Positions 2,964 to 61,056 of a DNA stretch of 64,000 bases are shown piece by piece; the first letter of the stretch is position 1, and each line of letters starts with the position of its first letter. The notes under the pieces are model-generated. The model did not search any database. It was not told the origin of the DNA and worked only from the letters and a program-made list of their open reading frames with translations. Source of the stretch: Ceratobasidium sp. AG-K (lineage: Eukaryota; Basidiomycota; Agaricomycetes; Cantharellales; Ceratobasidiaceae). The position numbers and the translations under genes were made by a program. The stretch covers positions 6,572,001-6,636,000 of the forward strand of contig JAWNGF010000001.1 in the NCBI GenBank assembly GCA_037039685.1, written 5' to 3'.

Positions 2964-3153
2964 ATGTCTAGAGCTCCATCACCCAGTCAAGGAGGGTTCA
3001 CCCAAATATCTGAAACATCCCCACCCAATGTAGTAGCACATGCAATCAATGTGCTAATAGATGAGGTGTGAAAGATAAATGGCCACATCAATGCCTTGAA
3101 TAGCATCACTACCACGCTAGAACAAGGAATTGACAACACTGTTGCGGATGTCA
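2964..3153 (+). pseudogene. Element A gag, fragment 1 (N-terminus)
   Basis: ATG at 2964 opens the gag frame (MSRAPSPSQGGFTQ). A TGA at 3069-3071 interrupts it (GTG TGA AAG). The frame runs up to the insertion point of B1 at 3153/3154 and resumes without a shift at 7713, since GTC A + TG GCA joins in phase. Gag would form the particle that packages the element RNA. Confidence 0.75.
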
Positions 3154-3609
3154 TGTTGTGAGCTAGCTCACAACATCGGACTCGCCCATTGTCTCGCCCG
3201 CCTTTCTCTCTCTTTCTGTTACGTTTCCTTTTCTGTTTGCCGCGTTGCCACCTTCTTGTGGTTATCCTGTTACATTGTGTAACGCGGCTGTGCTTTGTAC
3301 GAGTCATGTCTGTTCATACAGCATGACTCACATGGACACTCCTGACTGGCTGTTATGTATGACTCGTGTGGCTGCGTCTTGTATGACTCGGTCTCTTTCT
3401 GAATATATATAGAGGATCAACAAGCCTGGTAACCCCAGCTTGTTTTGTCTCGTCAAAACATCCCCATCGAGTGACACTTAGAACCACCCCTACCCTCAAG
3501 AGCCTACAGACGCTTAAGTGCGTTGCGGTTCAAGAGGTCACTTAGGTCTTAGTGCCGTCCACTCTCCATCGCGGCTCGTCTCATAGCCACCAAGAAGAAG
3601 CCTACGACA
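3154..3609 (+). repeat. 5' LTR of B1
   Basis: 456 bp, TGTTGTG...TACGACA. The first 22 bp (3154-3175) form a perfect palindrome not kept in B2 or D. A TATA-like tract (atatatatag, about 3400-3410) precedes agcttgttttgt at 3437-3448, the complement of the primer-binding site. Confidence 0.93.
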
Positions 3610-3611
3610 TT

Positions 3612-5636: not shown

Positions 5637-6880
5637 GTGTGTGGAGAGACAAAAAAACCGGCAACGGAAACAATGTACTTTAGAGCGACAAATGAATCTA
5701 CCATTGTTTACGCGAACGTTGCCGGAATCACAGAACCTATCCCAACCCTTATCGACTCTGGAGCATCAAAAAACTTCTTGGACATCTCGTGGGCTCGATC
5801 CAACAACATTCCACTCATTGAACTCTCCACTCCTAGAAAAGTAATTGGCATCCAGGGGAAGGAACTCTCTCACCAAATACGTTTCAAAGCTAAGCTGCAA
5901 CTAGAGGTAGAAGGAAGAACATTCAAACAAAAAGACCATCAAAGAAACTGGATAACAAAAAGCACGGGCCATTTGTCGTGAAACGACAGATAGGGTCACA
6001 CGCTTACGAGCTTGATTTGCCAGCAACAATGAGGGTGCACCCTGTTTTCCACATCGAATTGCTGAGCCCTTACAAAGGAGACACTGAATTCAGCCGTAAC
6101 CAACCCCGACCACCGCCAATCATAACGGAAGAAGGAGAGGAAGAATACGAAGTAGAGAAGATTCTGGACTGGAAAGAGACAAAGGACGGTCTTTTTTACA
6201 GGGTCAGATGGAAGGGTTATGGAAGTGAGGAAGACACAGAACAAAGGGCGGAAGATTTTGGTCACCTTTCAAGGATCATCAAGGACCTTCTACGCCGACA
6301 CCCCGAGGCTCCCACGCCATCTAACTACACTCCAGGGAAGATAAAAGGCAGAGGAGGCGAGACCAGTAGTGTCACTTGCAAAACTTGCTACTACTCCAAA
6401 AAACACTCCCAACTCCACGCTTTAAATCTTTTTTGCCCTCTGCAATGCCTGCCGTCTCCCGCTCCACCATTGCCAACAACCTCACCCGCGTCCTGGAGGG
6501 ACCTGCCTTTGCCACAGCAAGGATCCTCGACTCCGGGGCCGCCCTATACGTCTTCAAGAGGTCGCAACAAGGCTCGGGGAGAATGCATTTCAGGGCCTCG
6601 GACGACATCCTGCACTCAGACCTGGGGGAATTCCAGTGGGTCGGGAAGAAATGGCCGACACGAATGCAGCTCCTGCGAAAGGACATATTCGTCTGCCGAG
6701 GGTGCGCCGCATTCCAGGTCTCGGAGGTCGTTCTCCTCTCCACCCACATGCTTGGGGTGGTTGAATGGGGACAAGAAGGGGCTTACTCGAGCGAGTGGGT
6801 ACCAGGATACGACGGGAGGCAACCAACACTGCGACCCCGGTGGAACGACGCCTGGGACGCCAACTACGAGAGGGACTTGA
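5637..6880 (+). pseudogene. B1 pol remnant: protease N-terminus joined to chromodomain
   Basis: The pol frame opens as in B2 and carries the aspartic protease motif DSGAS (about residue 40). At the 5916-5928 microhomology it jumps to the end of the integrase region and shifts frame, stopping at 5981. The chromodomain frame restarts at 5978 (EYEVEKILDWKETKDG, RVRWKGYGSEEDTEQRAEDF) and remains open to 6880, but the last ~435 nt overlap ORF3 and appear to be a passenger frame. RT, RNase H and nearly all of integrase are absent. Confidence 0.88.
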
Positions 6881-7209
6881 GCGACTGGAAGCTGGAAAGG
6901 GGAAGATACCAGAAGGAGAAGTTCGAGTGGGCGCCTAACTGGTGGAAGTGGGAGGAAGCGGACGTTTCGGCATGGAAGGAAGCAGAGCCCGATGTGCGAC
7001 AGTGGGACGAGGAGCATGTGGAGGCCCGGGAGAGGGTTTTGGACTGGTCAAATGCAGATTGGACTAAGGAGGAGACTTGGGAAGAATGGGAGAAGTTCTC
7101 GGACGAACCGGGAAATACCGTCTTCAATCCCATCGACCTGACCCTGGAGGAGGACGAGGGACTGGAGGAGTACATGCTTGCAAAAGGCAAGGATTGTGGG
7201 ATCCAGTAG
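6445..7209 (+). CDS. ORF3 accessory protein of B1
   Basis: 254 codons, starting at the ATG of MPAVSRSTIANN, in a different frame from pol and overlapping its open end by 436 nt. Residues 1-142 are identical to B2 although 17 nucleotides differ, so this frame is under purifying selection. N-terminal half: compact, with VCRGCAAF (Cys pair at 84 and 87) and EWGQEGAYSSEWVPGY. C-terminal half: tryptophan-rich and acidic (W at short regular spacing from about 148 to 215), ending NTVFNPIDLT plus an acidic tail. No signal peptide or membrane segment is visible, so an envelope role is unlikely. I recognise no family. The start lies downstream of a pyrimidine tract, as in the other copies. Confidence 0.85.
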   Translation: MPAVSRSTIANNLTRVLEGPAFATARILDSGAALYVFKRSQQGSGRMHFRASDDILHSDLGEFQWVGKKWPTRMQLLRKDIFVCRGCAAFQVSEVVLLSTHMLGVVEWGQEGAYSSEWVPGYDGRQPTLRPRWNDAWDANYERDLSDWKLERGRYQKEKFEWAPNWWKWEEADVSAWKEAEPDVRQWDEEHVEARERVLDWSNADWTKEETWEEWEKFSDEPGNTVFNPIDLTLEEDEGLEEYMLAKGKDCGIQ

Positions 7210-7251
7210 AGCCCGTCCAGGTCCCCTAGACGGTCTCTTAGGGGGGAGTAA

Positions 7252-7707
7252 TGTTGTGAGCTAGCTCACAACATCGGACTCGCCCATTGTCTCGCCCGCC
7301 TTTCTCTCTCTTTCTGTTACGTTTCCTTTTCTGTTTGCCGCGTTGCCACCTTCTTGTGGTTATCCTGTTACATTGTGTAACGCGGCTGTGCTTTGTACGA
7401 GTCATGTCTGTTCATACAGCATGACTCACATGGACACTCCTGACTGGCTGTTATGTATGACTCGTGTGGCTGCGTCTTGTATGACTCGGTCTCTTTCTGA
7501 ATATATATAGAGGATCAACAAGCCTGGTAACCCCAGCTTGTTTTGTCTCGTCAAAACATCCCCATCGAGTGACACTTAGAACCACCCCTACCCTCAAGAG
7601 CCTACAGACGCTTAAGTGCGTTGCGGTTCAAGAGGTCACTTAGGTCTTAGTGCCATCCACTCTCCATTGCGGCTCGTCTCATAGCCACCAAGAAGAAGCC
7701 TACGACA
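7252..7707 (+). repeat. 3' LTR of B1
   Basis: 456 bp, two differences from the 5' copy (near 7654 and 7666). A purine-rich tract (ggggggagtaa) precedes it. Followed by tgtca at 7708-7712. Confidence 0.93.
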
Positions 7708-7712
7708 TGTCA

Positions 7713-8186: not shown

Positions 8187-8676
8187 TGTTGTGACCTGTC
8201 CCGCCCTCTGCCTCTCCTTCTGCGGACTTGTGGCTTGTATCGGCGCCTTATGCGCCTCTTCTGTATAGATGTGCCCTCTCCCTTGTTTAGTGAGGTGTAT
8301 GGATGATGTGTCACCATGAGTCATATGACTCATGCTGTTTTCTATTGGCTGGCCTGAGCAGCCCCCTTTATGACTCAGACTCTGACTCAGGCTTGTGACT
8401 CATGTACCTTATATGACTCACTCGCCTTTTGCCTATATATACTGGCTTGCAAGCATGGTCACCCCCAGCTTGCTTTGCCTTGTCAACTCTCCCTGCAGTG
8501 TGTGATCAGAGGCACTTGGCTACTTAGCCACTACAGCAGCCACTTGGGATTTGGAGCTAGGACTTCTACTCAGAAGCTAGCAATTTCCCTTAGCGATTTA
8601 GTCTACTTAGACTTATTGCTCACGGTCAACAAGGCAATTAGCAGTTGTCAACTCTCCTACTTAGCAGGTTGCGACA
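8187..8676 (+). repeat. 5' LTR of C
   Basis: 490 bp, TGTTGTGACC...GCGACA. TATA-like tatatata (about 8443-8450) lies upstream of agcttgctttgc (8467-8478), the complement of the primer-binding site. Confidence 0.93.
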
Positions 8677-8678
8677 TT

Positions 8679-13900: not shown

Positions 13901-15539
13901 AGAAGGAGACAACATGTGGCTTTTGACCACCAACATCAACACTAGGCGCCCAAGCAAGAAGCTTGATGACAAAAAGACTGGCCCCTTTGTTGTCAAAAAA
14001 CGTATCTCTTTGCACGCCTACCAACTTGACCTCCCCAAGTCCATGAGAATACATAACGTCTTCCATGGAAACATGTTGACTCACTACAAAGAAGATGTGG
14101 ATTTCCATCGAAACCAACCCCAACCTCCGCTGATAGTTATGGAAGAAGGGGAGGAGGAATACGAAGTAGAAAGGATCATTGATTGGCATCAAGACCCTGA
14201 CGGGCTGAAATACCGCATCAGATGGAAAGGTTACGGACCTCTAGAAGATACAGAAGAACGGGCGGAAAAATTTGCCAATATGACTCAGGTGATGAGAAAG
14301 TTCCAGAAGGACTTTCCCACCGGCCCTCTTCCTCTGAATTTCAAACCACAGGAATACAAAAAGACAAGAGGAAAGGCAGCTGAGGTCCTCATCCCAGCTA
14401 CTCAGCCTACCACTCCCAGTCCGCTCTTAGCAAACACTCAATCAAAAACCTTTTTTTCACTTTTACAATGGCCCCCATCCGCTCCAACAACACCGCCGCC
14501 ACTGCCTGCCTCGCCTCTTACAGGCTCAGTGCTGCCTATGGCAAAGCCATCATGGCCAGAGGACCAGGCGAATTTGCCATCAACTGCAGGGCCACAGCGC
14601 CTTGGTCCCTCAAGGAGGCCAGGAAACTGGCCAACGACCTTGAGCCTGGGGTTCACCTTGGCTACATCCCCCTTGCCAAGCGAGGCGACCTCAAGTGGGA
14701 CAAAGAACAAAAGTCCCTCATCCACCCCCAACTCGGCTCCCTCCTCTGGGTCAGCCACCCCAACGCCCGGCCCTCAGACCCAACTGACATTGGCCATAGC
14801 AAGTATTACCACTACCATGGCTGCATTGGACTCACCGTCCGCAATGTTGTCACCAAGAGCATTGATGCCTGGAATAGGGACACGGGCTACAAGTGGGAAG
14901 GAGACAAGTGGTTCAAGCGAGAAACCGACCCCTGCGTCGCATTGGCCAATGGAGGTTACATCAATAGCGACGGAATCTGGTGGAGCGATTGCTCCTACGA
15001 CTTCACTAGCGGTTGGCCCGCCCCTTGTGAGTGGCAAAGAAAGCCTGAACCACCAGTCGCTGACAATACCTACCCCGAAACCCCTTCCAACGCTATCTAC
15101 TGGTCAAAAGGCGCCGACGGAAGCAGCCAAGTCGACATGGCCGACCAGCCAATGGAACCAGGCGAAATCAAGGAGGAGGAGGTCGACATCCCTCCCCCTC
15201 CCCCTATCACCAACACAGAGGCAGAGCGAATGGAGCGGGAATGGAACGCAGCCTGGGACAAGGCCCAGGAAAACATCAAGGCCCTCATCACCAACGTCAG
15301 GCAGGCAATCGCCAAACTGGAGCCCCACCCGCCCGCTGACCGCATGCCTTGTGACGCCAATGTCCTGGAGGCCTACCGCCTTGTCCAGTGCGGATCCTGG
15401 AAGGTCAACCAGCTCAACAAGTGGCTCAACCAACAACAAGAGCAGTGGGCACTCCGGGAGCAGCAAGAGCTCGAGTGCTTGCAACTACAACACCAGGAAG
15501 AGCTCGACAGGCTCTACCAGGAGAAATGGGACTGCATGA
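10960..15539 (+). pseudogene. Pol of C (PR-RT-RNase H-IN-chromodomain), inactivated
   Basis: The pol frame lies -1 relative to gag and overlaps its end. ATG at 10960 precedes the protease, whose catalytic triplet reads DSSSS instead of DSGAS. RT has FITSLDLKNGFWNVRI and FGLKNAPSMFQRMM, but the catalytic box is YIDNI instead of YIDDI. A one-base deletion near 12121 shifts the frame; it continues from 12123 with RNase H (FLETDASGVALGAIL), the integrase zinc finger (HHDTPMAGHQGQARTLELL...CEICQR), integrase core (YDFIVKLP, VSDRGTTF, AEKTNQ) and chromodomain (EYEVERIIDW...RWKGYGPLEDTEERAEKF). Beyond about 14460 the frame stays open for 1,072 nt but is a Ser/Pro/Thr-rich shadow of ORF3. Confidence 0.9.
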
Positions 15540-15622
15540 ACAAGGTCCTTGAATCGGACATGCAAAACCTTGCGGAATGGGTTGGTTGGTTGGAGCTGAA
15601 GGAATGGGTCACCCGCAGATGA
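14468..15622 (+). CDS. ORF3 accessory protein of C
   Basis: 384 codons from an ATG after a pyrimidine tract, same place and frame relation as the ORF3 of B, but hardly alignable: the proteins share only a short start pattern (M-[PA]-x-x-R-[SA]), tryptophan-rich composition and an acidic/helical C-terminus. The first ~190 residues look globular (KYYHYHGCIGLTVRNVV, DGIWWSDCSYDF, PCEW); then a Pro/Glu linker (EEEVDIPPPPPI) and a Gln/Glu-rich coiled coil (about 330-370). No signal peptide or membrane span. It is intact, although the gag and pol of the same copy are broken. Function unknown. Confidence 0.7.
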   Translation: MAPIRSNNTAATACLASYRLSAAYGKAIMARGPGEFAINCRATAPWSLKEARKLANDLEPGVHLGYIPLAKRGDLKWDKEQKSLIHPQLGSLLWVSHPNARPSDPTDIGHSKYYHYHGCIGLTVRNVVTKSIDAWNRDTGYKWEGDKWFKRETDPCVALANGGYINSDGIWWSDCSYDFTSGWPAPCEWQRKPEPPVADNTYPETPSNAIYWSKGADGSSQVDMADQPMEPGEIKEEEVDIPPPPPITNTEAERMEREWNAAWDKAQENIKALITNVRQAIAKLEPHPPADRMPCDANVLEAYRLVQCGSWKVNQLNKWLNQQQEQWALREQQELECLQLQHQEELDRLYQEKWDCMNKVLESDMQNLAEWVGWLELKEWVTRR

Positions 15623-15663: not shown

Positions 15664-16153
15664 TGTTGTGACCTGTCCCGCCCTCTGCCTCTCCTTCTGC
15701 GGACTTGTGGCTCGTATCGGCGCCTTATGCGCCTCTTCTGTATAGATGTGCCCTCTCCCTCGTTTAGTGAGGTGTATGGATGATGTGTCACCATGAGTCA
15801 TATGACTCATGCTGTTTTCTATTGGCTGGCCTGAGCAGCCCCCTTTATGACTTGGACTCTGACTCAGGCTTGTGACTCATGTACCTTATATGACTCGCTC
15901 GCCTTTTGCCTATATATACTGGCTTGCAAGCATGGTCACCCCCAGCTTGCTTCGCCTTGTCAACTCTCCCTGCAGTGTGTGATCAGAGGCACTTGGCTAC
16001 TTAGCCACTACAGCAGCCACTTGGGATTTGGAGCTAGGACTTCTACTTAGAAGCTAGCGATTTCCCTTAGCGATTTAGTCTACTTAGACTTATCGCTCAT
16101 GGTCAACAAGGCGATTAGCAGTTGTCAACTCTACTACTTAGCAGGTTGCAACA
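15664..16153 (+). repeat. 3' LTR of C
   Basis: 490 bp, about 13 differences from the 5' copy, preceded by a G-rich tract (gtggggggg) and followed by the duplication ttttg (16154-16158). Confidence 0.93.
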
Positions 16154-16158
16154 TTTTG

Positions 16159-16847
16159 TCACTTATTCATCAGTACTCGGGTACACTGATCAAGTACTTC
16201 GTGATGATTTCTACAATGGTCTTAAAGATGAAATCAAAATGGCCATGGTATCACAGAACTTCAAACCCCATGAAGCAACAAGGACATTTAACCAAGTTTG
16301 CAAATGAGCCCTGGAAATCAATTCCACAATGAATGCCATTAATGCACCAAAAAAAGTTCAAAGCCTACAAGCCAGCACCTCAAAACAAACTACACCTAAG
16401 ATGGCCACAAACACTGCAAACACCTTACTAGGCCAAAGGTTCAACATAAACAATCATGTCTTCATGTCAAAACCTACAGGGGGGGTTCAATATGGAAAAA
16501 TCTCAAGTATTTCCAGGAACGCAAAAGGCCGTGCAGTTCCACAAATCTCCTGGGATGATGGAACTAAAGGAAATGTTCTGTTTGGAGCAATTCAGGAAGA
16601 CACCAGAACCACTACCTTCACCACTCCCACAACCCAAACGCCTAAGACATCCACTCCCGCAAAAGACCCCAATGCAATGGATCTTGATGGCAAGGGAAAG
16701 ACACCCATGATTTGCTTCACCTGCGGCGGCAAGGGACATTCAGCAAGAGTCTGTCCTTCCAAGAACACGGCCTCGGGATTTGAAGCCCAGATTGAAGAAA
16801 TCTCTTCAGACGTTGAGTTGGGAAAAGACATCACCGAGGCTTATTAA
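16159..16847 (+). pseudogene. Element A gag, fragment 3 (zinc knuckle)
   Basis: Resumes the A gag frame after C (YSSVLGYTDQVLRDDFYNGLKDEI). A TGA at 16305-16307 breaks it. The C-terminus has a CCHC zinc knuckle (CFTCGGKGHSARVC, about 16711-16752) for RNA binding and ends at TAA 16845-16847. The pol frame starts 36 bp later in the -1 frame. Confidence 0.85.
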
Positions 16848-16882
16848 GGAGCCAAGTACTCGGTGATAGATTAGCTAGTAAT

Positions 16883-19800: not shown

Positions 19801-19898
19801 CTACAAACACTACTTTGATAAGGGAGCCAAAGAACCAGAAGAGATAAAACCTGGAGATAAAGTCTGGCTTAATCATCAAAACATATCCACAGACAGAC
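16883..19898 (+). pseudogene. Element A pol: protease, RT, RNase H and integrase with two TGA stops
   Basis: Protease motif is LLDCGATSCF; RT has TLDLAQGFHQTQI, FGLKNAPSSFQSLM and an intact YIDDI. A TGA at 18224-18226 replaces the first Arg of the conserved NFYRRF. RNase H follows (FFLETDALGFATGAVL), then the integrase zinc finger (CHDNITAGHPGQARTLELI...CETC) and a second TGA at 19151-19153, where relatives have Gln-Arg. The integrase core keeps YDMIVGLP, LDRGSTFNS and SERANQ. B2 inserted at 19898/19899, after NHQNIST, just before the chromodomain segment. Product in life: replication and integration enzymes of A. Confidence 0.9.
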
Positions 19899-20356
19899 TG
19901 TTGTGAGCTGGCTCACTCCATTGGACTCGCCCATTGTCTCGCCCGCCTCTCTCTCTCTCTTTCTGTTACGTTCCCGTTTCTGTTTGCCGCGTTGCCACCT
20001 TCTTGTGGTTATTCTGTTACATTGTGTAATGCGGCTGTGCTTTGTACGAGTCATGTCTGTTCATACAGCATGACTCACTTGGACACTCCTGACTGGTTGA
20101 CTGCTGTGACTCATGTGGCTGCGCCTTGTATGACTCGGCCACTTCTTGAATATATATAGAGGACCAACAAGCCTGGTAACCCCAGCTTGTTTTGTCTCGT
20201 CAAAACATCCCTTCTGAGTGACACTTAGAACCACCCCTACCCTCAAGAGCCTACAGACGCTTAAGTGTGTTGCGGTTCAAGAGGTCACTTAGGTCTTAGT
20301 GCCGTCCACTCTCCATCGCGGCTTGTCTCATAGCCATCAAGAAGAAGCTTACGACA
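19899..20356 (+). repeat. 5' LTR of B2
   Basis: 458 bp, one difference from the 3' copy (the base after ccatt/ccatc near 19922). TATA-like atatatatag lies near 20150-20160, then agcttgttttgt at 20184-20195. About 90% identical to the LTR of B1. Confidence 0.95.
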
Positions 20357-20378: not shown

Positions 20379-22376
20379 ATGTCTATTCAAGAGGATGGAG
20401 GATCACGTCCCGCATCCACCATATCAAGAAGAGGACCCAGTCGAGCAGCAAGGCCCACAGGATCACTAAATGAGCAAGATATTGCACAGACTCAAGCAGG
20501 AGGCCCCGCTCGATCGCGCCCCCAAAGTCAAGCATCAATGCCAGGATCTTTCGGCATTCCCGACATAACAACTGTACAAGAGGAGGAACCCACTATCACG
20601 AATAGAGAACCAGGAGATCTCACAAACGACCCCACTCCAGCTGTAATTCGCATTCCAACTGGAAGTCCAGGACCATCACGTCCCTTGTGGCCACCAGGGA
20701 CTAGAAGACAGTTCTTTTCTCCCCAACCCGAAGCTCATGGGGGCGTGTCGCTTGTTCCCATTAGACCCCCTCCTACACCGCACATTCCCAATGTCCCCAC
20801 AGTCCCGCAAATTGGAGGAACTATCACCAACGCAGGACCGATCCCATTGGCTTCCCAGCCAGTTACACCAGCGATTCCAGCACCACCATATGTCCCACAG
20901 GGTTACTCCCAGCAATCAGCTCCAGTACAGCAAGGCGCCGGTGATCCAGGAAGTTCAAGTTCAAGTTCCAGCCCCAGCGGCAGGACTATAATCAGTAACC
21001 TAGACGACCTGGACGACCTTCTAGAAGGGAGACACAACGCCACCCTTAGGGTTATAGACGGAATGAGGGTCACTATAGATCGAAGGCTTAGTGGTCTAGA
21101 ACAAGCCACACAAGTTCTAGCAAACAACCAGCAAATCTTTAATGACTCCATCAATACCCTACAAGGAACCTTGACGGACATTCTGAACTCGGCAAGAAAT
21201 GGCAAACATAATTCCTTTCTAGTCGGACAAGACGTAACCCGCCTTCGAAATGAAGTTACCAATACCCAAGGACTAGTGAATAATGTACGCGAAGAGCTCA
21301 ACACTACCAGACAAGGACAACTCGAATGGAATGAGGCAGTAACGCAAGGACTAGAAACCTTACGACAGGAGGGAGCCTCTTTCACTATCAAAATCACGGA
21401 AGTTCAAGAAACTATAAACAACATGCGAGAAGAAATGGACGAAGCATCTCTGCACGGGATCCCCTCTAGGCGATCAAATTCTCCACCGCATCCAGATGCG
21501 GAATCTACCAGGATCGACGAATTAGAATTGAGAATCCAACGACTAACCGAGAACCCAAACATCGGTAGCGGATCACGTCGTCCCAAGGTAACTCGCCCAG
21601 AGTCCTTTGACGGAAAGAAAGGAGAAGGCGCTGAGATGTTTATCACGCAAATGGAAAGTTATTTTGTACGTCTAGGCGATCAATACACTTCCGACGAGGA
21701 AAGGATCCGCGAAGCCCTAGCAAACTTCAAATCCGAGAACAAAGCCGCCACTCACTGGGCACAAGTTCTCTTACGATCGCTTAACCAAGGAGAAATTAAC
21801 CAGAGTCTTGCCTCATGGGAGGGTTTCAAAGCACACTTCATGGAACAATTTAGCGACCCCAACAAAAAGGCAAAAGCCGAAATCGATATCAGGAAATGCA
21901 AGCAGAACAATTCGGTAGCAAACTATGCTTCTGAATTCCGTTACTTATTGGTTGACGTCAACTGGGGACAGGAAGCACTGATCAACCAATTCAAGGAAGG
22001 ACTGAAGCCTGAAGTAAAAACCGAACTAGCTCGATTCGAATTAACCCTGATTAACGAGGACGGAACGGAACAAGAGCTGTCCCTTGACCGATGGATCTCA
22101 ATCGCAATCTCTATTGACCAGAAATTGCAACAAATCAAGGGCTCTACAGGGAAGAAGACAATCCAACCAACCGCTAGCGGACAATCCTCTACAAAGCGAC
22201 TACCCGACGAAGTATACAAGGCAAGGATAGCAACCAACCGCTGCCTAAAGTGCGGACAGGAAGGACACCGCTCATTCAAATGCCTGTCCAAGGAATGGAT
22301 AACAACGGAACCCAGCGTTAAAGGAAGAGAGGCAACAATTGTGGAAGACTCAGGAAAAGAAGGGGTCTCCCTCTAA
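20379..22376 (+). CDS. Gag polyprotein of B2
   Basis: 665 codons from ATG 20379 to TAA. Disordered Pro/Ser-rich N-terminus, coiled coil, gag capsid domain (PESFDGKKGEGAEMFITQM onward, about 404) and CCHC zinc knuckle (CLKCGQEGHRSFKC, about 626). It should assemble the cytoplasmic particle. The pol frame is -1 and open from about 22322, giving a 55-nt overlap in which I find no canonical X-XXY-YYZ slippery heptamer, so the way pol is translated is not settled. Confidence 0.95.
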   Translation: MSIQEDGGSRPASTISRRGPSRAARPTGSLNEQDIAQTQAGGPARSRPQSQASMPGSFGIPDITTVQEEEPTITNREPGDLTNDPTPAVIRIPTGSPGPSRPLWPPGTRRQFFSPQPEAHGGVSLVPIRPPPTPHIPNVPTVPQIGGTITNAGPIPLASQPVTPAIPAPPYVPQGYSQQSAPVQQGAGDPGSSSSSSSPSGRTIISNLDDLDDLLEGRHNATLRVIDGMRVTIDRRLSGLEQATQVLANNQQIFNDSINTLQGTLTDILNSARNGKHNSFLVGQDVTRLRNEVTNTQGLVNNVREELNTTRQGQLEWNEAVTQGLETLRQEGASFTIKITEVQETINNMREEMDEASLHGIPSRRSNSPPHPDAESTRIDELELRIQRLTENPNIGSGSRRPKVTRPESFDGKKGEGAEMFITQMESYFVRLGDQYTSDEERIREALANFKSENKAATHWAQVLLRSLNQGEINQSLASWEGFKAHFMEQFSDPNKKAKAEIDIRKCKQNNSVANYASEFRYLLVDVNWGQEALINQFKEGLKPEVKTELARFELTLINEDGTEQELSLDRWISIAISIDQKLQQIKGSTGKKTIQPTASGQSSTKRLPDEVYKARIATNRCLKCGQEGHRSFKCLSKEWITTEPSVKGREATIVEDSGKEGVSL

Positions 22377-22378
22377 CT

Positions 22379-25300
22379 GTGTGTGGAGAGACAAAAAAAC
22401 CGGCAACGGAAACAATGTACTTTAGAGCGACAAATGAATCTACCATTGTTTACGCAAACGTTGCCGGAATCACAGAACCTATCCCAACCCTCATCGATTC
22501 GGGAGCTTCAAAGAACTTCTTGGACATCTCTTGGGCTCGATCCAACAACATCCCACTCATGGAACTTTCCACTCCTAGAAAAGTAATCGGTATCCAGGGG
22601 AAGGAACTCTCTCACCAAATACGTTTCAAAGCGAAGCTGGAACTAGACGTGGAAGGAAAAACCTTTAAACAAATCTTCTTTGCTATGCCTACTGGGGAAA
22701 CTAAACTTATCCTAGGACTAGAATGGTTAGAAGAAGCAAACCCGGTCATCGATTGGAAAACAAAGCACATATCATGGCGGCCAGAACCCATCAAAGCAAG
22801 AACAGCCTCAATAGACGACTTACTGGAAGAATTCAAGGAATTTGCCGATGTCTTCAGTGAAGAGAAATTCAAAAGAATCCCAGATCATCGACCATACGAC
22901 TGCGCCATCGATTTCAAGGAAGGAGCCGAACTTCCAAAACCGGCCAGACCAATCCCACTCTCTCCAGCAGAATCAATTGCACTAAGAGAATACCTGGATG
23001 AAGAAATCGCAGCAGGAAAGATCCGACCAAGCAAATCACCCATTGCATCACCTTGTTTCTTTGTTAAAAAACCCATCGATCCAAAAAATCCAGGAGCAGT
23101 TCGCCAGCTACGACTTGTTCAAGACCTCAGAGGAGTAAACGCCATTACAAAGGACGACAGATTCCCAATGCCCCTAATGGAAGACCTCCTGGATAAAATC
23201 AAGGACGCAAAAATTTTCTCCAAAATTGATCTACGCATGGGTTTCAACAATATCAGAATTAGGGAAGGTGACGAATGGAAGACAGCTTTCAGAACAAAGG
23301 AAGGACTCTTCGAATACGTCGTCATGCCTTTTGGATTAAAAAACGCGCCCGCCATCTTCCAAAGATATATGAATCACATTTTCCATGATCTTATTGACGT
23401 ATGTGTCATTGTTTACATTGACGACATCCTGGTCTTCTCCAAGGACAGAAGCCAACATACCGTGGATGTCAGGAAAGTACTAAAGATATTACTGGAGGAA
23501 AATCTTTTCGCAAAGCTTCCAAAATGCGAATTCTTTGTCACCAAATTAACGTATACTGGACTTGGAATCAGCGACTCGGGCATCTCTATGGAGGAAGAAA
23601 AGGTCAAAGCAATAAAGGAGTGGAAGGAACCAAAAACAGTCAAGCAAGTCCAAGCGTTCCTAGGATTCGCGAATTTCTACCGAAGATTCGTACCAAATTT
23701 CAGCCGTTTAGCAAAACCCCTGACAACCTTGACAAGGAAGGAGAACAAATGGGAATGGGGAAACAATCAGCAGGAAGCATTTGAAGCCTTAAAGGCGGAG
23801 ATCAGCAAGGAACCCACTCTACGCCATCCGAACCCTGACAAACCCTTTTTCTTGGAAACAGACGCAAGTGGAGTAGCAATGGGAGCAATCCTGTCGCAAA
23901 GGCAAGATGATGGCTACCTACACCCTATTGCTTTTCTTTCAAAATCTTTCAACGAAGCCCAGCTCAACTACGACATCCACGATAAGGAACTTATGGCTAT
24001 TATAGAATCCTTAACACATTGGAGACTATATCTAGAAGGAACAAAAGACCCCATCACCATCTACACCGATCATAGGAACCTACAGTTCTGGAAGGAAGCA
24101 AGAACTTTCAACCGTCGACACGCAAGATGGCATCAATTGCTTGCTTCCTATAACTTTGATATCATATACCGCCCTGGAATCCTATCATCTAAACCGGACC
24201 TATTGTCTAGACGATCCGACCATGAAGATACTCCCACGCCTGAACAGGTTATGATATCTGTCGAAAGGTTCAAGGGATTTGTGGGACAAGTAAACACGAA
24301 TATCATAGAAACTATCAAGGAGGCTCAGGATACAGATGAAGGACTAGCACGAATCAAGGAAATCTGCAAGTCAAGGGAAACGTTACCAAAGACCCTACAA
24401 CACAGCGCGAAGGATTATGATTTCAAGGAGGGACTATTATGGTTCAAGGGAAGGATCTACGTACCAGAAGATAAGGAATCCAGACTGGCCATCATGCGAA
24501 TTCATCACGATTCGAAAATTGCAGGACATCAAGGACAGGCTAGAACACTGGAACTAATATCAAGAAGATACTTCTGGCCAGGAATGAAGCAAAGCATAAA
24601 CAGATACGTGGAATCATGTGAGACCTGCCAACGGACAAAGGGATCAAAGTCATTAGTACCGATCAAACCTCTGGAGATTCCAAAAGGACCGTGGGAAGAC
24701 ATAGCGTTCAACTTCGTAGTAAAGTTACCAAAATCCAGGGGATCAGATAGCATCTTAGTAGTGGTGGACCGATTCTCAAGAATGGCGCACTTCATACCCT
24801 GCAAAGAATCTCACACGGCAAGCGACCTGGCAAATCTTTTTATCACAAATGTTTGGAAACTGCACGGCTTTCCAAAGAGCACAATCTCAGACCGAGGGAC
24901 TACTTCCAATTCCAAACTTATAAAGGCCGTTTACGAGAAAATTGGAACTAGCCCAGGGTTCAGCACTGCCTACCACCCCCAAACGGATGGAATAACGGAG
25001 AGAATCAATCAATGGATGGAAGGCTGGCTACGATCGTTCGTCAACTACCGACAGGATGATTGGGCGGACTTGTTACCAATTGCGGAATTCAGCTATAATC
25101 TACAGAAGCACCGCGTAACGGGTAGTTCCCCCTTCAAAATTGTCTACGGGAGGGAACCACTGTGGAACATCTCAACAGAAGAATCAGCAGTTCCAGAAGC
25201 AAACAACATCACAGGAAAATGGCGTAAAATCCACGATGAAGCAATCGCATCAATGGAAACCCAAAGGCTTCCAGAAGAAGCGCCGAAGAACGTGTACCAA

Positions 25301-26293
25301 AAAGGAGATCTAGTTTGGCTGCTGGGAAAGAACATTCAAACGAAAAGACCATCAAAGAAACTAGATAACAAAAAGCACGGGCCATTTGTCGTGAAGCAAC
25401 AGATAGGGTCACACGCTTATGAGCTTGATTTGCCGGCAACAATGAGGGTGCACCCTGTTTTCCACATCGATTTGCTGAGCCCTTACAAGGGAGATACTGA
25501 ATTCAGCCATAACCAACCCCGACCACCGCCAATCATAACAGAAGAAGGAGAGGAAGAATACGAAGTAGAGAAGATTTTGGACTGGAAAGAGACAAAGGAC
25601 GGTCTTTTTTACAGGGTCAGATGGAAGGGTTATGGAAGTGAGGAAGACACAGAACAAAGGGCGGAAGATTTTGGTCACCTTTCAAGGATCATCAAGGACC
25701 TTCTACGCCGACACCCCGAGGCTCCCACGCCATCTAACTACACTCCAGGGAAGATAAAAGGCAGAGGGGGCGAGACCAGTAGTGTCACCTGCAAAACTTG
25801 CTACTACTCCAAAAAACACTCCCAACTCCACGCTTTAAATCTTTTTTGCCCTCCACAATGCCTGCCGTCTCCCGCTCCACCATCGCCAACAACCTCACCC
25901 GCGTCCTGGAGGGACCTGCCTTTGCCACGGCAAGGATCCTTGACTCCGGGGCCGCCCTATACGTCTTCAAGAGGTCGCAACAAGGCTCGGGAAGAATGCA
26001 TTTCAGGGCCTCGGACGACATCCTGCACTCAGACCTGGGGGAATTCCAGTGGGTCGGGAAGAAATGGCCGACACGAATGCAGCTCCTACGAAAGGACATA
26101 TTCGTCTGCCGAGGGTGCGCCGCATTCCAGGTCTCGGAGGTCGTTCTCCTCTCCACCCACATGCTCGGAGTCGTTGAATGGGGACAAGAAGGGGCGTACT
26201 CGAGCGAGTGGGTACCAGGTTACGACGGAAGGCAGCCAACGCTCCGACCTAGATGGAACGACGCCTGGGACGCCAACTACGAGAAGGACCTGA
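22379..26293 (+). CDS. Pol polyprotein of B2 (PR-RT-RNase H-IN-chromodomain)
   Basis: Open for 1,304 codons, first ATG at 22415. Protease DSGAS at residues 40-44; RT with FSKIDLRMGFNNIRI, FGLKNAPAIFQRYM and YIDD at 346-349; RNase H from about 490 (FFLETDASGVAMGAIL); integrase zinc finger about 704-750 (HHDSKIAGHQGQARTLELI...CETCQR); integrase core with ISDRG and ITERINQ, but IAFNFVVKLP where relatives have YDFIVKLP, so the first Asp of the D,D-35-E triad is Asn at about residue 778; chromodomain about 1059-1110 (RVRWKGYGSEEDTEQRAEDF), which usually directs insertion to methylated-histone chromatin. The natural end is probably near 25860; the remaining ~145 codons shadow ORF3. Confidence 0.93.
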   Translation: MCGETKKPATETMYFRATNESTIVYANVAGITEPIPTLIDSGASKNFLDISWARSNNIPLMELSTPRKVIGIQGKELSHQIRFKAKLELDVEGKTFKQIFFAMPTGETKLILGLEWLEEANPVIDWKTKHISWRPEPIKARTASIDDLLEEFKEFADVFSEEKFKRIPDHRPYDCAIDFKEGAELPKPARPIPLSPAESIALREYLDEEIAAGKIRPSKSPIASPCFFVKKPIDPKNPGAVRQLRLVQDLRGVNAITKDDRFPMPLMEDLLDKIKDAKIFSKIDLRMGFNNIRIREGDEWKTAFRTKEGLFEYVVMPFGLKNAPAIFQRYMNHIFHDLIDVCVIVYIDDILVFSKDRSQHTVDVRKVLKILLEENLFAKLPKCEFFVTKLTYTGLGISDSGISMEEEKVKAIKEWKEPKTVKQVQAFLGFANFYRRFVPNFSRLAKPLTTLTRKENKWEWGNNQQEAFEALKAEISKEPTLRHPNPDKPFFLETDASGVAMGAILSQRQDDGYLHPIAFLSKSFNEAQLNYDIHDKELMAIIESLTHWRLYLEGTKDPITIYTDHRNLQFWKEARTFNRRHARWHQLLASYNFDIIYRPGILSSKPDLLSRRSDHEDTPTPEQVMISVERFKGFVGQVNTNIIETIKEAQDTDEGLARIKEICKSRETLPKTLQHSAKDYDFKEGLLWFKGRIYVPEDKESRLAIMRIHHDSKIAGHQGQARTLELISRRYFWPGMKQSINRYVESCETCQRTKGSKSLVPIKPLEIPKGPWEDIAFNFVVKLPKSRGSDSILVVVDRFSRMAHFIPCKESHTASDLANLFITNVWKLHGFPKSTISDRGTTSNSKLIKAVYEKIGTSPGFSTAYHPQTDGITERINQWMEGWLRSFVNYRQDDWADLLPIAEFSYNLQKHRVTGSSPFKIVYGREPLWNISTEESAVPEANNITGKWRKIHDEAIASMETQRLPEEAPKNVYQKGDLVWLLGKNIQTKRPSKKLDNKKHGPFVVKQQIGSHAYELDLPATMRVHPVFHIDLLSPYKGDTEFSHNQPRPPPIITEEGEEEYEVEKILDWKETKDGLFYRVRWKGYGSEEDTEQRAEDFGHLSRIIKDLLRRHPEAPTPSNYTPGKIKGRGGETSSVTCKTCYYSKKHSQLHALNLFCPPQCLPSPAPPSPTTSPASWRDLPLPRQGSLTPGPPYTSSRGRNKAREECISGPRTTSCTQTWGNSSGSGRNGRHECSSYERTYSSAEGAPHSRSRRSFSSPPTCSESLNGDKKGRTRASGYQVTTEGSQRSDLDGTTPGTPTTRRT

Positions 26294-26622
26294 GCGACTG
26301 GAGGATGGAGCAAGGCAGATACCAGAAGGAGAAAATCGAATGGGAGCCTTACTGGTGGAAGAAGGAGGAGACTGACGTGTCGGCATGGAAGGAAGTAGAG
26401 CCCGATGTGCGACAGTGGGACGAGGGGCATGTGGAGGCCCGGGAGAGGGTTTTGGACTGGTCAAATGCGGATTGGACAAAGGAGGAAACTTGGGAAGAAT
26501 GGGAGAAGTTCTCGGACGAACCGGGAAATACCGTCTTCAATCCCATCGACCTGACCCTGGGGGAGGACGAGGGACTGGAGGAGTACATGCTTGCAAAGGG
26601 CAAGGATTGTGGGATCCAATAG
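25858..26622 (+). CDS. ORF3 accessory protein of B2
   Basis: 254 codons, same length as B1 and D. The first 142 residues equal those of B1; about 13 of the next 50 differ (WKLER/WRMEQ, FEWAPNWW/IEWEPYWW), so the tryptophan-rich region tolerates change. The last ~60 residues are again nearly identical. Overlaps the open tail of pol by 436 nt in another frame. The upstream sequence ctttaaatcttttttgcc could be a TATA/initiator for a separate transcript, which is inference. Function unknown. Confidence 0.88.
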   Translation: MPAVSRSTIANNLTRVLEGPAFATARILDSGAALYVFKRSQQGSGRMHFRASDDILHSDLGEFQWVGKKWPTRMQLLRKDIFVCRGCAAFQVSEVVLLSTHMLGVVEWGQEGAYSSEWVPGYDGRQPTLRPRWNDAWDANYEKDLSDWRMEQGRYQKEKIEWEPYWWKKEETDVSAWKEVEPDVRQWDEGHVEARERVLDWSNADWTKEETWEEWEKFSDEPGNTVFNPIDLTLGEDEGLEEYMLAKGKDCGIQ

Positions 26623-26664: not shown

Positions 26665-27122
26665 TGTTGTGAGCTGGCTCACTCCATCGGACTCGCCCAT
26701 TGTCTCGCCCGCCTCTCTCTCTCTCTTTCTGTTACGTTCCCGTTTCTGTTTGCCGCGTTGCCACCTTCTTGTGGTTATTCTGTTACATTGTGTAATGCGG
26801 CTGTGCTTTGTACGAGTCATGTCTGTTCATACAGCATGACTCACTTGGACACTCCTGACTGGTTGACTGCTGTGACTCATGTGGCTGCGCCTTGTATGAC
26901 TCGGCCACTTCTTGAATATATATAGAGGACCAACAAGCCTGGTAACCCCAGCTTGTTTTGTCTCGTCAAAACATCCCTTCTGAGTGACACTTAGAACCAC
27001 CCCTACCCTCAAGAGCCTACAGACGCTTAAGTGTGTTGCGGTTCAAGAGGTCACTTAGGTCTTAGTGCCGTCCACTCTCCATCGCGGCTTGTCTCATAGC
27101 CATCAAGAAGAAGCTTACGACA
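26665..27122 (+). repeat. 3' LTR of B2
   Basis: 458 bp; preceded by the purine tract ggggggagtaa and followed by cagac. Confidence 0.95.
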
Positions 27123-27127
27123 CAGAC

Positions 27128-30430: not shown

Positions 30431-30538
30431 TTGCCCATTCGGTTCCCGTCGACACAGGAAATGCTCACAGTAAGTATCATCCCGTTGTGTGTGTCCCTTA
30501 TGTATGAATCATTCACTCGCAGGCAGCCAATTCCTAAC

Positions 30539-57239: not shown

Positions 57240-59841
57240 ATGCCGCCAAAAGGGAAGGCCAATGCTACTGCCTCTCGTGCAAACACCCAAACTGCGAATG
57301 CAAAGCACGCCAAGGACGAAGATGACCAGCCACCCGCTGCCCCTGCTGCCAAAAAAGGACGCACCACTCAGAACGCGTCAGATCAGGTTGACAACAACAC
57401 AGTCGGGGGCGAAACCGCCAACTTGTCAGGTATGGATATGGACTAGGCGCTTTGATTTAGGCTAACATTACAGCACTCGCACCCATAGATCTCCCAGATG
57501 CTCCTGTCGTGACTGTCAAGAAGAAAACAGGACGCGGAAGGGGCGCCAATACGGCCAAAAACAAGAAAGTGGAGCACAAACTGGAGCCCAACCCACCCGC
57601 CGGTACCATTTCCATTGGTCCCACCGTCGGGACTCCCAATTCTCCGACACAAGATGTCGGCATGTTACCTCCGCCCCCGGAGAAAAAGAAGAAGTCCAAG
57701 GGCAAAGGACCACTCAAGACTGACAACACCATGTCAGCCCCGCAAGATTTGACTCTGGCTGAAACAGAGTCAACCTCAAAAACACGTCCAGAGCGCAAGA
57801 CAACACAATCAAGGGTTGCCAAGCAAGGTAATGTCTTATATATGGTTTTTAGATTCTACTCAATGACTTGCTTGTTGTAGTGTCACAACAAGAGGACAAC
57901 AGTAAGTTTTGGCATTAACTCAAACTTTGTCAATACAGGCTGATAATCCGTGACAGAACAGCGTCAGAAAGAGCAAAAACTTCAGCACCGAGTAGAAAAG
58001 CAACAAAAAACCCCAATTAGCGAGACACCTGAGGAAACTGAAGCGTTTCTGGCAAGTGCCCGCAAGGCCTCCGACCCCAAGTCAACTTCAAAGAATGGTC
58101 AAGTGAGTAGCCCATTCTCGTAGACGATTGTGTATTGTGTTAATTGGTATCATCAGGTCTCTTTATCGCACTCCGTTCCACCTCCCAATAAGCAACAAGA
58201 AAGCAATCTCTTAATTGCTTAGCGGGTGGCAAAGCATATGGTTTCCCCGGCTCCTTCTGCCTTCTCAGTTGCAACAAGCGGTTCACATAGTGCCAATATA
58301 TCAGCCCCTCCTACTGGACGGGGTACGCATCTCGCCCCTCCATCTGTTACAAGCTCTCGAGCAGCCTTGGTTCAACCAAGTGGATTGTCGCATAGTTGTT
58401 CTGCGTCGATTGCTGCACCACCTTCTGTTGCCTCTCAAGCTGGATCTCTGTGTGCACCTTCAACTCGGACCACCTCCCCTCTCCCCGAAGACAATTTTGG
58501 AGCTGCGAATGATCCATTTTTGGATTCCATGCTTGCCGAGTCCCTCGAGAGTCTTCCACAGAGCCTGGCTCCCAAGCTTCTTCCCCTCGTCCCGCTTCCA
58601 GCTCTGTTGAGGGAACCCAGGCGCAAGATCCCACTGGAAGAGATTGATTACGACAACCTTTCGCTCAAGCAACAGAAGGCGTACAATAAGAAGACCAAGC
58701 TGACAATGAATGCGCTTGTCAACAGTGATCAGACAATCGTTTCAGCCATTGTCAGTAGACTCGATGCGCTCGTAAATACTCACAATCCATTCCCCAACGA
58801 CGACGACCTCTTTATGCTTTGTTCAGAGGCAAATGCATGGGGATGTCGAAAGTTTGGAAGAGCTAATTTCGAATTGCTTCCAGGAAGCCCATACTTTAAG
58901 CTGGTACAATTTGTCTCCGCATTTTTCTTGTCTCAGTCACATCATGAATTACTGACTCTTTGACTCTAGCTCGATGGACGACTTGCCAACATGCGTAGTG
59001 GTTTAGTCAAACACACCGACCATGAGGCACCTACAAAATATGGGTTGCTGTCACCAACCGACCCAAAGGCGGTGGAAAAGAACCAAAAGCTTGTAACGCT
59101 GCTTCTACACAATGCCAATTTCACGCTCCCAGTGAGTTTAGTGTTTGACATCTGATTTTCCTTATCTGGATGCTCTGGGGGCGGTACTAACATGCCCTTA
59201 TCTTATCTTAGTCATTGGAACCAAAGGACCGGGGCGCATTCTACAAGAATCCCCTCTTTGTCTTGATTCTCCAGCAAGCTTTTTTTCGGACAACGCAGAG
59301 CACGGGTGTCAAACATTGTGATCTCTGGCGCACAGTGACGGTTCCAGCCTTAGCCGCCGTCGCAACAGTCATATGTTCGAGTCCTTAACCTCAGTTCTCA
59401 CTAATATGTCTGTTTGATTGTAGGTCAAGAAAGTATTAATCGAATACAAATCTGGAAAGCAAATACGGAAAAAGTTCTCAGGCAATGAGTTCTGGAGCAA
59501 ATACCTATCGCACATTGTCACATTATGCCATATGTACCAGGCTGACCCCGACCGGCTCGAAACCTACTGTTCCAAGATGTCGCAGAAGCTTTTGTGAGTG
59601 TCTTCCGCTTACGGAGGATGCGATCACAATGACCAACTGGTAAATCTTCAGTATTGCTTTCAGATCGCCATTCAGTGCAATCAACAACGAGCCTGTTTCT
59701 GTTGCACCACGCATTCCGGTGGCCATCATTGCCGCAGAGTATGGCAGGTCGTCAGGGTCAAGCGCCCGTACCTGTTGTAAGCTTCTTCTTGGTGGCTATG
59801 AGACAAGCCGCAATGGAGAGTGGACGGCACTAAGACCTTAG
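57240..59841 (+). CDS. DUF6532-like protein, 3' end cut by an LTR insertion
   Basis: Exons 57240-57429, 57474-57827, 57881-57901, 57957-58102, 58223-58903, 58970-59131, 59212-59367, 59424-59593, 59664-59841; 2,058 nt, 685 residues. The first ~400 residues are Lys/Pro/Ser-rich and disordered (MPPKGKANATAS; GRGRGANTAKNKK). The C-terminal ~280 match the basidiomycete DUF6532 pattern: KLTMNALVNSDQTIVSAI, GAFYKNPLFVLILQQAFFRTT, LAAVATVVKKVLIEYKSGKQIRKKFSGNEFWSKYLSHI. The LTR of element D begins at 59773 inside the last exon and supplies the final ~23 codons and the TAG at 59839-59841. The natural C-terminus is lost, though most of the domain seems present. Function unknown. Confidence 0.7.
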
Positions 59842-60246
59842 TGACCTCTTGAACCGCAACACACTTAAGCGTCTGTAGGCTCTTGAGGGTAGGGGTGGTT
59901 CAAAGTGTCACTCAAAGGGGATGTTTGACGAGACAAAACAAGCTGGGGTTACCAGGCTTGTTGGTCCTCCATATATATTCACAAAGTGGCCGAGTCATAC
60001 AAGGCGCAGCCACATGAGTCATACAAAAACAGCCAGTCAGGAGTGTCCATGTGAGTCATGCTGTATGAACAGACATGACTTGTACAAAGCACAGCCGCAT
60101 TACACAGTGTAACATATAACCACAAGAAGGTGGCAACGCGGCAGGAAAAACAAATCAAAAGGAAAAACAAAGAACAAACACAAGTACAGGCAACAAGAGA
60201 GGATGAGACATAGACGAGTCCGATGGCGAGAGCATGGCTCACAACA
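59773..60246 (-). repeat. 3' LTR of element D
   Basis: 474 bp on the minus strand, TGTTGTGAGCC...TACAACA, clearly homologous to the LTRs of B1 and B2 with more indels. TATA-like tract at about 59970-59980. Confidence 0.88.
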
Positions 60247-60291
60247 TTACTCCCCTTTTAAGGTCCTTGAGGGGAACCCAAAAGGACTGAT

Positions 60292-61056
60292 CTACTGCAC
60301 CCAGCAGTCCTTGTTGACCTTTTCGACCAGGGAGTCGAGCTCGTCCTCTTTTTCTTCCGTGAGGTCGATGGGGTTGAACACAGTATTACCTGGTTCATCG
60401 CAGTGTTCCTCCCACTTCTCCCAGGTCCTCTCGTCCGTCCAGTCCGCCTTGGACCAGTCCATGACCCTCTCCTGCTCCTCCACATGCTCCTTGTCCCATT
60501 GTCGTACGTCCGGCTCAACCTCCTTCCATTCCGACAAGTCCGCATCCTTCTCCTGCCACCAGAATGGCTTCCATTCGAACTTCTCCCTCTGGTAGCGTCC
60601 CTGCTCCATCCTCCAATCCGCCAAGTCTGCTTCAAAGTTCTTGTCCCATGCGTCTGTCCATCGAGGCCTCAGAGTGGGAGGGCAACCTTTGTATCCTGGT
60701 ACCCATTCGCTGCTGTAGGCTCCTTCTTGTCCCCATTCGACCACCCCGAGCTTGTGCATGGATAGCAACACGACTTTGGACACTTGGAAGGCTGCGCACC
60801 CTCGGCATACGTAGATGTCTTTTTGCTGGAGCTGCATGCGTGTTGGCCATTTTTTGCCAACCCATTCGAACTCCCCCAGGTCGGAGTGCAGGATGTCGTT
60901 GGAGGCATGGAATTGGAGCCGCCCTGGACTCTGCTGGGACCTCTTGAAGACGTAGAGCACTGCTCCTGAGTCAAGGATGCGGGCCGTCTGGAAGCCTGGC
61001 CCGTTGAGAACACGAACGAGGTTGTTGGCAATGGTGGCACGGGTGACGGCGGGCAT
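60292..61056 (-). CDS. ORF3 accessory protein of D
   Basis: Again exactly 254 codons (MPAVTRATIANN...). About three quarters identical to the ORF3 of B1/B2, including VCRGCAAFQVS, VVEWGQEGAYSSEWVPGY, EPDVRQWD and EPGNTVFNPIDLT. Intact, although pol of the same copy has at least three stops and a frameshift. Overlaps the open tail of pol (to 60669) in another frame. Confidence 0.85.
   Translation of the reverse strand: MPAVTRATIANNLVRVLNGPGFQTARILDSGAVLYVFKRSQQSPGRLQFHASNDILHSDLGEFEWVGKKWPTRMQLQQKDIYVCRGCAAFQVSKVVLLSMHKLGVVEWGQEGAYSSEWVPGYKGCPPTLRPRWTDAWDKNFEADLADWRMEQGRYQREKFEWKPFWWQEKDADLSEWKEVEPDVRQWDKEHVEEQERVMDWSKADWTDERTWEKWEEHCDEPGNTVFNPIDLTEEKEDELDSLVEKVNKDCWVQ

What the first reader, a model, noticed from the sequence alone, without database searches (positions are those of the whole stretch)
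6445..7209. ORF3: a selected, uncharacterised third protein in Ty3/gypsy elements
Three elements (B1 6445-7209, B2 25858-26622, D 60292-61056) have an ORF of exactly 254 codons after pol. Between B1 and B2, codons 1-142 have 17 nucleotide differences in 16 codons, every one silent in ORF3, while about 16 alter the residue read in the overlapping pol frame. That separates the real gene from the shadow frame using only this window. The protein has a Cys-pair N-terminal domain and a tryptophan-rich acidic C-terminus, no signal peptide or membrane span, so it is not an obvious envelope. It also survives intact in copies whose pol is deleted (B1) or broken (D), so it may act on packaging, nuclear access or host silencing (inference).
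Basis: partly seen in the sequence, partly recalled or inferred. Interest (0 to 1): 0.9.

Follow-up and report, generated by a model that had tools for sequence, protein, structure and literature searches.

The report
Selected third gene in fungal retrotransposons
Many copies of a jumping element in this fungus carry a third gene that natural selection keeps intact and that shares its DNA with the end of the pol gene; it makes an accessory protein whose job is not yet known.

Summary
In detail: B1 and B2 differ at 17 bases in codons 1-142, none changing ORF3, 16 changing the pol frame; D lies on the minus strand. Across 51 genomic copies ORF3 has omega about 0.23-0.31 in 25 independent pairs; in 20 copies picked by upstream DNA alone it is 0.20, and 16 of 20 ORFs are intact. 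It has no significant Pfam, PDB, gag or pol match. The neighbouring element C carries a distant relative, a 384-aa ORF3 sharing a CRGC core (hhalign E 2.7e-5).

Two corrections. Pol is no mere shadow frame: it stays open to one of two stops in 51 of 51 copies; simulation expects premature stops in 11.3 of 20 pairs, 0 are seen. This is dual coding. And survival in B1 and D says little, because their LTR pairs are 99.3% and 98.3% identical.

ORF3 coding starts at its own ATG, about 105 nt below a TATA-like box. I favour a separate, internally started mRNA for a nuclear accessory protein; function is inference. A 2010 figure legend already names an unexplained 'add. ORF' in fungal elements.

The parts
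6445..7209 (+). ORF3 of element B1 (254 aa)
25858..26622 (+). ORF3 of element B2 (254 aa)
60292..61056 (-). ORF3 of element D (254 aa), minus strand
14468..15622 (+). ORF3 of element C (384 aa), distant homologue of the 254-aa ORF3 through a CRGC core
22415..26293 (+). pol of B2 (protease, RT, RNase H, integrase, chromodomain); its last 436 nt overlap ORF3 in another frame and the frame is kept open
25858..26293 (+). dual-coding overlap of pol and ORF3 in B2
14468..15539 (+). dual-coding overlap of pol and ORF3 in element C (1072 nt)
25753..25761 (+). TATA-like box (GATAAAAGG here; TATAAAAGG or TATTAAAGG in related copies), 105 nt before the ORF3 ATG
25790..25801 (+). frozen block TGCAAAACTTGC, about 37 nt after the TATA-like box; its pol codons (CKTC) hardly vary at silent sites; candidate transcription start region (inference)
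20379..22376 (+). gag of B2
19899..20356 (+). 5' LTR of B2
26665..27122 (+). 3' LTR of B2 (1 mismatch in 458 against the 5' LTR)
3150..3610 (+). 5' LTR of B1
7248..7708 (+). 3' LTR of B1 (3 mismatches in 461)
8187..8678 (+). 5' LTR of C
15664..16155 (+). 3' LTR of C (13 mismatches in 492)
59773..60250 (-). LTR of D next to ORF3 (8 mismatches in 478 against the LTR beyond the window end)

Best explanation
ORF3 is a true accessory gene of a chromodomain-bearing Ty3/gypsy lineage in a fungus. It lies after the chromodomain, in the -1 frame relative to pol, and its first 129-145 codons (about 350 in the C family) share DNA with a pol tail that is also kept open, so both proteins are made from the same bases. 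Translation starts at ORF3's own ATG, not by frameshifting from pol. Because many pol AUGs lie upstream on the full-length RNA, the likeliest source is a short 3' mRNA started at an internal promoter: a TATA-like box 102-105 nt before the ATG and a frozen block 33-37 nt further on. The protein has a basic N-terminal half with a CRGC core and an acidic, tryptophan-rich C-terminal half; I think it is a nuclear regulatory or adaptor protein that touches nucleic acid or chromatin with the first half and host partners with the second, working like (not related to) the Tas transactivator of foamy viruses. Shown: real gene, purifying selection, dual coding, own start, homology of B and C ORF3. Inferred: separate mRNA (about 0.5), nuclear regulator (about 0.25).
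For: Selection: omega 0.23 (overlap) and 0.31 (rest) in 25 pairs from 51 copies; 0.20 in 8 pairs from copies chosen by upstream DNA only, ATG kept 20 of 20, full 254-codon ORF 16 of 20; C family 0.38 in 9 pairs. Dual coding: pol frame open to the same two stops in 51 of 51 and to codon 145 in 19 of 20 unselected copies; simulation with ORF3 constraint alone gives premature pol stops in 11.3 of 20 pairs, 0 seen, and in the C family 5.4 of 6, 1 seen; pol-silent changes in excess in the C overlap (z 4.8) and B/D overlap (z 2.1) but not outside it (z -0.3). Own start: upstream of the ATG the pol frame is constrained (omega 0.46) while the ORF3 frame is not (2.49) and holds stops in 16 of 20 copies; ATG in 50 of 51; 11 of 51 have an ORF3-frame stop within 66 nt before the ATG. 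Promoter-like: TATA-like match at -105/-102 in 51 of 51; silent-site difference 0.03 in the -71 window against 0.15-0.59 in the other windows. Homology of B and C ORF3: hhalign E 2.7e-5.
Against: No RNA or protein data. Only 9 of 51 TATA-like boxes are perfect TATAAAA; 31 are GATAAAA, 10 TATTAAA, 1 TATAACA, and the box lies in pol codons IKGR whose residues are conserved anyway. The frozen block falls just short of my own run threshold (Lys codon 0.94 against 0.95). The block CATCCCAGCTACT of element C is in 20 of 20 close copies but altered in the divergent copies shown. ATG depletion in the leader is modest: 5 seen, 13.2 expected in 22 copies; 4 against 7.2 in C. Activation-domain-like windows are common in B2 (22 of 216) but rare in D (2 of 216) and C (4 of 346). 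The SIM-like PIDLT motif is absent from the C family by eye. The structure model is unusable (pLDDT 34.6). hhalign probability for B-C homology is only 74%, over 48 columns.
Confidence: 0.45

Rival explanations
1. ORF3 is made from a spliced mRNA (LTR promoter, intron removed over gag-pol), as for retroviral accessory genes.
For: Also gives a short mRNA with the ORF3 ATG near the 5' end. Close C-family copies have a conserved pyrimidine-rich CCCAG stretch upstream of the ATG.
Against: In the B/D family the only AG common to all 48 aligned copies in the last 160 nt is at -99, inside AAAAGG, a poor acceptor.
Confidence: 0.2
2. ORF3 is a structural or replication helper (Gag, integrase or RNP partner) rather than a nuclear regulator.
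For: It travels with gag and pol and is under selection during replication; highly conserved Trp columns suggest a folded binding surface.
Against: No similarity to gag or pol; nothing here ties it to particles.
Confidence: 0.3
3. ORF3 counters host silencing (small RNA, heterochromatin, SUMO-linked repression).
For: A PIDLT motif followed by acidic residues near the C-terminus, like SUMO-interacting motifs as I recall them, is NPIDLT in 47 of 51 copies; chromoviruses carry a chromodomain.
Against: Motif not seen in the C family; the SIM reading is recalled, not tested.
Confidence: 0.2
4. ORF3 is an envelope gene.
For: Third ORF after pol, the usual place of env (PMC5408684, section 3.3 read).
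Against: No hydrophobic span, no Pfam hit.
Confidence: 0.02
5. The ORF is a chance open frame or a displaced pol piece.
For: It overlaps pol.
Against: omega 0.2-0.4 in the ORF3 frame and above 1.7 in the other two; no pol or gag similarity.
Confidence: 0.01
6. ORF3 is made as a pol fusion by -1 frameshifting.
For: It lies in the -1 frame and overlaps pol.
Against: ORF3 frame before the ATG is unconstrained with stops in 16 of 20 copies; 11 of 51 have a stop within 66 nt of the ATG; ATG kept in 50 of 51.
Confidence: 0.03

Closest known systems
'add. [quoted passage not shown] 2010, PMC2864245 (section 5 read in full; figure itself not held)
   Same: An extra ORF of unknown function drawn in full-length fungal elements of a survey centred on chromodomain-bearing Gypsy families.
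   Different: Only the figure legend names it; which element, where, and whether it is homologous, selected or dual-coding is not said in the text I read.
Non-envelope ORF3s of bdelloid rotifer LTR retrotransposons (GDSL lipase, DEDDy exonuclease), PMC5408684 (passages and section 3.3 read)
   Same: Third ORF downstream of pol that is not an envelope.
   Different: Those are captured enzymes with clear domains; this one has no significant Pfam match and overlaps pol.
Foamy virus Tas, expressed with an internal promoter (starts of abstracts seen in a search listing: PMC8670036, PMC4929722)
   Same: 3' accessory gene; internal promoter in addition to the LTR is what I propose by analogy.
   Different: No sequence match to any Pfam family; different host, no env; promoter and transactivation untested.
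Fungal chromoviruses as surveyed in PMC3248453 (passages only)
   Same: gag-pol Ty3/gypsy elements, chromodomain as an added pol domain.
   Different: The passages shown mention no third ORF.

Membership tests
Chromovirus (Ty3/gypsy LTR retrotransposon with chromodomain) | gag and pol between LTRs, with RT, RNase H and integrase | tested here: met
   B2: gag and pol domains, LTRs 19899-20356 and 26665-27122
Chromovirus (Ty3/gypsy LTR retrotransposon with chromodomain) | chromodomain at the pol C-terminus | tested here: met
   PF00385 E 9.5e-8 in B2 pol and 6.9e-9 in C pol, both above cut-off
Retroviral envelope | signal peptide and membrane span | tested here: not met
   No long hydrophobic stretch by hydropathy; no signal-peptide program run
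Displaced gag or pol domain | profile similarity to the element's own gag or pol | tested here: not met
   hhalign E 0.36 to pol residues 1-1090 and 0.41 to gag, probability 0.2% and 0.1%
Foamy virus Tas/Bel family | sequence membership | tested here: not met
   No Pfam family at E <= 1 for two ORF3s; best of 26 members 0.03 to unrelated families; that Pfam holds a foamy Bel model is recalled
Foamy virus Tas/Bel family | expression from an internal promoter | tested here: inconclusive
   TATA-like box and frozen block; no RNA data
Foamy virus Tas/Bel family | transactivation of the LTR | not testable with these tools
   needs a reporter assay
Dual-coding overlapping gene | both frames kept by selection | tested here: met
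   ORF3 omega 0.2-0.4; pol frame stays open against simulation
Captured-enzyme ORF3 (GDSL, DEDDy, dUTPase) | enzyme domain | tested here: not met
   No significant Pfam or PDB match
Single ORF3 family shared by B/D and C | common profile and position | tested here: met
   hhalign E 2.7e-5, probability 74%, 48 columns; same place and frame offset relative to pol

The most novel reading that the evidence does not exclude
ORF3 founds an old family of fungal chromovirus regulators: a foamy-virus-like plan (internal promoter, 3' regulatory gene) evolved on its own in a retrotransposon, with the regulator written over the pol tail in a dual-coding overlap of up to about 1.1 kb.
Probability: 0.2. Interest if true: 0.85.

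Novelty: new variant of a known kind. Interest (0 to 1): 0.6.

Why it matters
Extra ORFs in LTR retrotransposons are usually dismissed or called envelope-like. Here one is shown by per-frame tests to be selected, shared between two diverged element families in one genome, and dual-coded with pol. If it is a regulator with its own promoter, intracellular retrotransposons evolved complex-retrovirus-style gene control. The high copy number makes the question directly testable from public RNA data of such fungi.

Tried and rejected
Rejected: envelope; displaced pol or gag; chance ORF; -1 frameshift fusion; use of B1 and D survival as evidence of function. B1's pol deletion junction is shared by none of the other 29 loci compared; L004 and L030 are truncated differently. 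An apparent step in pol conservation at -540 came from a few truncated copies and was dropped.

Led nowhere: viral-contig scans; PDB profile searches, best E 2.8 and 0.31; AlphaFold model, mean pLDDT 34.6 and pTM 0.21, so no fold search was run and the second structure job was not used. Six E-lineage copies (all with long open pol frames, of 150 scored) serve as a control clade: pol ends at the same codon after the chromodomain in 6 of 6; after it, within the shared sequence, 5 of 6 have no stop-free stretch of 80 codons and L103 has one of 89.

Sampling and dropped rows: L001-L030 are the 30 best protein hits (3 with an internal stop); L051-L070 were chosen by me among rows without internal stops. 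That choice could bias omega down, hence the DNA-chosen control (ranks 16-36 of 40 hits, less one already fetched; 8 pairs from 17 of 20 copies). D/mid pairs alone give omega 0.36. Searches used 20 of the 25 pairs (five of the closest left out) and 7 and 6 of the 9 C pairs (truncated copies left out; one search also needs an open start). C family: 29 loci, 19 open beyond 330 codons, of which L033 and L041 are truncated; L080 dropped as 5'-truncated. One search used 21 of 22 representatives (L062 dropped). In the C family the pol frame has early stops in L074, L075 and L076, i.e. 3 of 19; two truncated copies show none and 14 reach codon index 346-366. In one search frame +2 shows a deficit of silent changes in both overlaps (z -4.7 and -2.8), the mirror image of the pol-frame excess.

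Full report
Observation. The three 254-codon ORFs are where the finding puts them, D being on the minus strand. The B1/B2 count is exact: 17 differences in codons 1-142, 16 codons, none altering ORF3 and 16 altering the pol-frame residue. Elements B1, B2, C and D lie in a 53.6 Mb genome of 17 contigs. B2 has gag, and pol with protease, RT, RNase H, integrase and chromodomain, so it is a chromovirus. That the host is a basidiomycete fungus is my inference from the elements and neighbours, not from a call.

Selection. I compared 51 copies: 30 best protein hits, 20 more diverged ones chosen from rows without internal stops, and D. The protein alignment has no gaps. In 25 non-overlapping nearest pairs omega in the ORF3 frame is 0.23 in the overlap and 0.31 beyond it; the other two frames are above 2.2. 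Codons 51-106 are the most constrained (0.16). Because choice by protein hit could bias this, I searched the genome with 430 nt lying wholly upstream of ORF3 and took 20 of its 40 scored hits. The ATG is kept in 20 of 20, the 254-codon ORF in 16 of 20 (two more end one or two codons early, two are broken), and omega is 0.20 in both parts (8 pairs).

Relatives. Element C has a 384-aa ORF in the same place and frame offset. Of 29 of its genomic copies or relatives, 19 are open beyond 330 codons, and omega is 0.38 in 9 pairs. Profile comparison joins the two ORF3s over 48 columns (E 2.7e-5, probability 74%): residues 54-101 of the 254-aa form against 83-133 of the 384-aa form, around a CRGC core. 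Outside this genome only three partial metagenome proteins were found, 84%, 71% and 67% identical. There was no significant Pfam or PDB match and no relative in viral contigs. A control lineage, element E, ends pol at one codon just after the chromodomain in 6 of 6 copies and lacks a comparable ORF; one of the six has an 89-codon stop-free stretch.

Dual coding. The pol frame continues into ORF3. In 51 of 51 copies it is open to one of two stops (31 at codon index 144, 20 at 128), and in 19 of 20 unselected copies to 144. Simulating each pair with ORF3 constraint alone gives premature pol stops in 11.3 of 20 pairs (minimum 5 in 300 runs); 0 are seen. For the C family 5.4 of 6 are expected and 1 seen, although 3 of its 19 open copies do have early pol stops. 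Beyond the pol stop, 44 of 51 copies have at least one stop in that frame. Silent changes in the pol frame exceed expectation in the C overlap (z 4.8) and in the B/D overlap (z 2.1) but not outside it (z -0.3). So the pol tail is translated, or at least kept translatable, while its residues are only loosely constrained. Synonymous shuffles of single copies are weaker support: a stop-free pol frame in 3-6% of shuffles each.

Start of ORF3. Between chromodomain and ATG the pol frame is constrained (omega 0.46) and the ORF3 frame is not (2.49, stops in 16 of 20). The ATG is kept in 50 of 51. A frameshift fusion is therefore unlikely. Since many pol AUGs would precede this ATG on the full-length RNA, a shorter mRNA is likely (established knowledge of scanning; inference here). 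A TATA-like sequence stands at -105 or -102 in 51 of 51, but only 9 are perfect TATAAAA, and pol residues IKGR account for part of its conservation. About 35 nt further on, the codons TGC AAA ACT TGC are almost frozen at silent sites (0.94-1.0 in 22 representatives) although only 13.6% of 169 comparable pol codons reach 0.95, and ACT is the rarest Thr codon (30 of 344). The stretch from -75 to the ATG has no upstream ATG in 48 of 51 copies. This fits TATA plus initiator, but does not prove it. In B/D copies the only AG present in all 48 aligned sequences is at -99, which argues against a spliced origin in that family.

Function. The first 128 residues are basic (pI 8.7, 9.3 and 9.5 in B2, D and C) and the rest acidic (4.3-4.5) and Trp-rich. 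Sixteen Trp columns are kept in 50 or 51 of 51 copies, and NPIDLT in 47 of 51. The AlphaFold model is too poor to use. A nuclear regulator or adaptor is my leading guess (about 0.25 alone), with a structural helper and a silencing antagonist close behind.

Novelty. An additional ORF of unknown function is named in the Figure 3 legend of PMC2864245, so the kind is not new. My nine answered paper searches showed no description of this protein family, its selection, or a dual-coding overlap; that covers only the held open-access library and the terms used.

Noticed in passing
16329-19906 and 27124-27510: B2 sits inside another chromovirus (E): its pol runs up to the B2 5' LTR and resumes right after the 3' LTR, with a chromodomain-like end and no ORF3.
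   Followed up: partly
L058 (and possibly L057): ORF3 of L058 looks like a mosaic: 91-96% identical to D over its first three parts and 71% in the last, where it is nearer B2 (79%); L057 has a B-like end at the protein level only. Suggests template switching between families.
   Followed up: partly
20151-20196 and 8437-8480: Both LTR types have a TATATATA stretch followed within about 25 nt by an inverted repeat built on CAAGC/GCTTG, maybe an RNA hairpin near the transcript start.
   Followed up: no
30461-31012, 44735-45208, 49024-49992: Three caspase-domain (Peptidase_C14) genes or gene pieces lie in about 20 kb.
   Followed up: no
54035-55168 (-): Plavaka transposase (PF18759, E 3e-55).
   Followed up: no
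12123-12189 and 61513-61517: pol of C and of D each carry at least one frame disruption in the window.
   Followed up: partly
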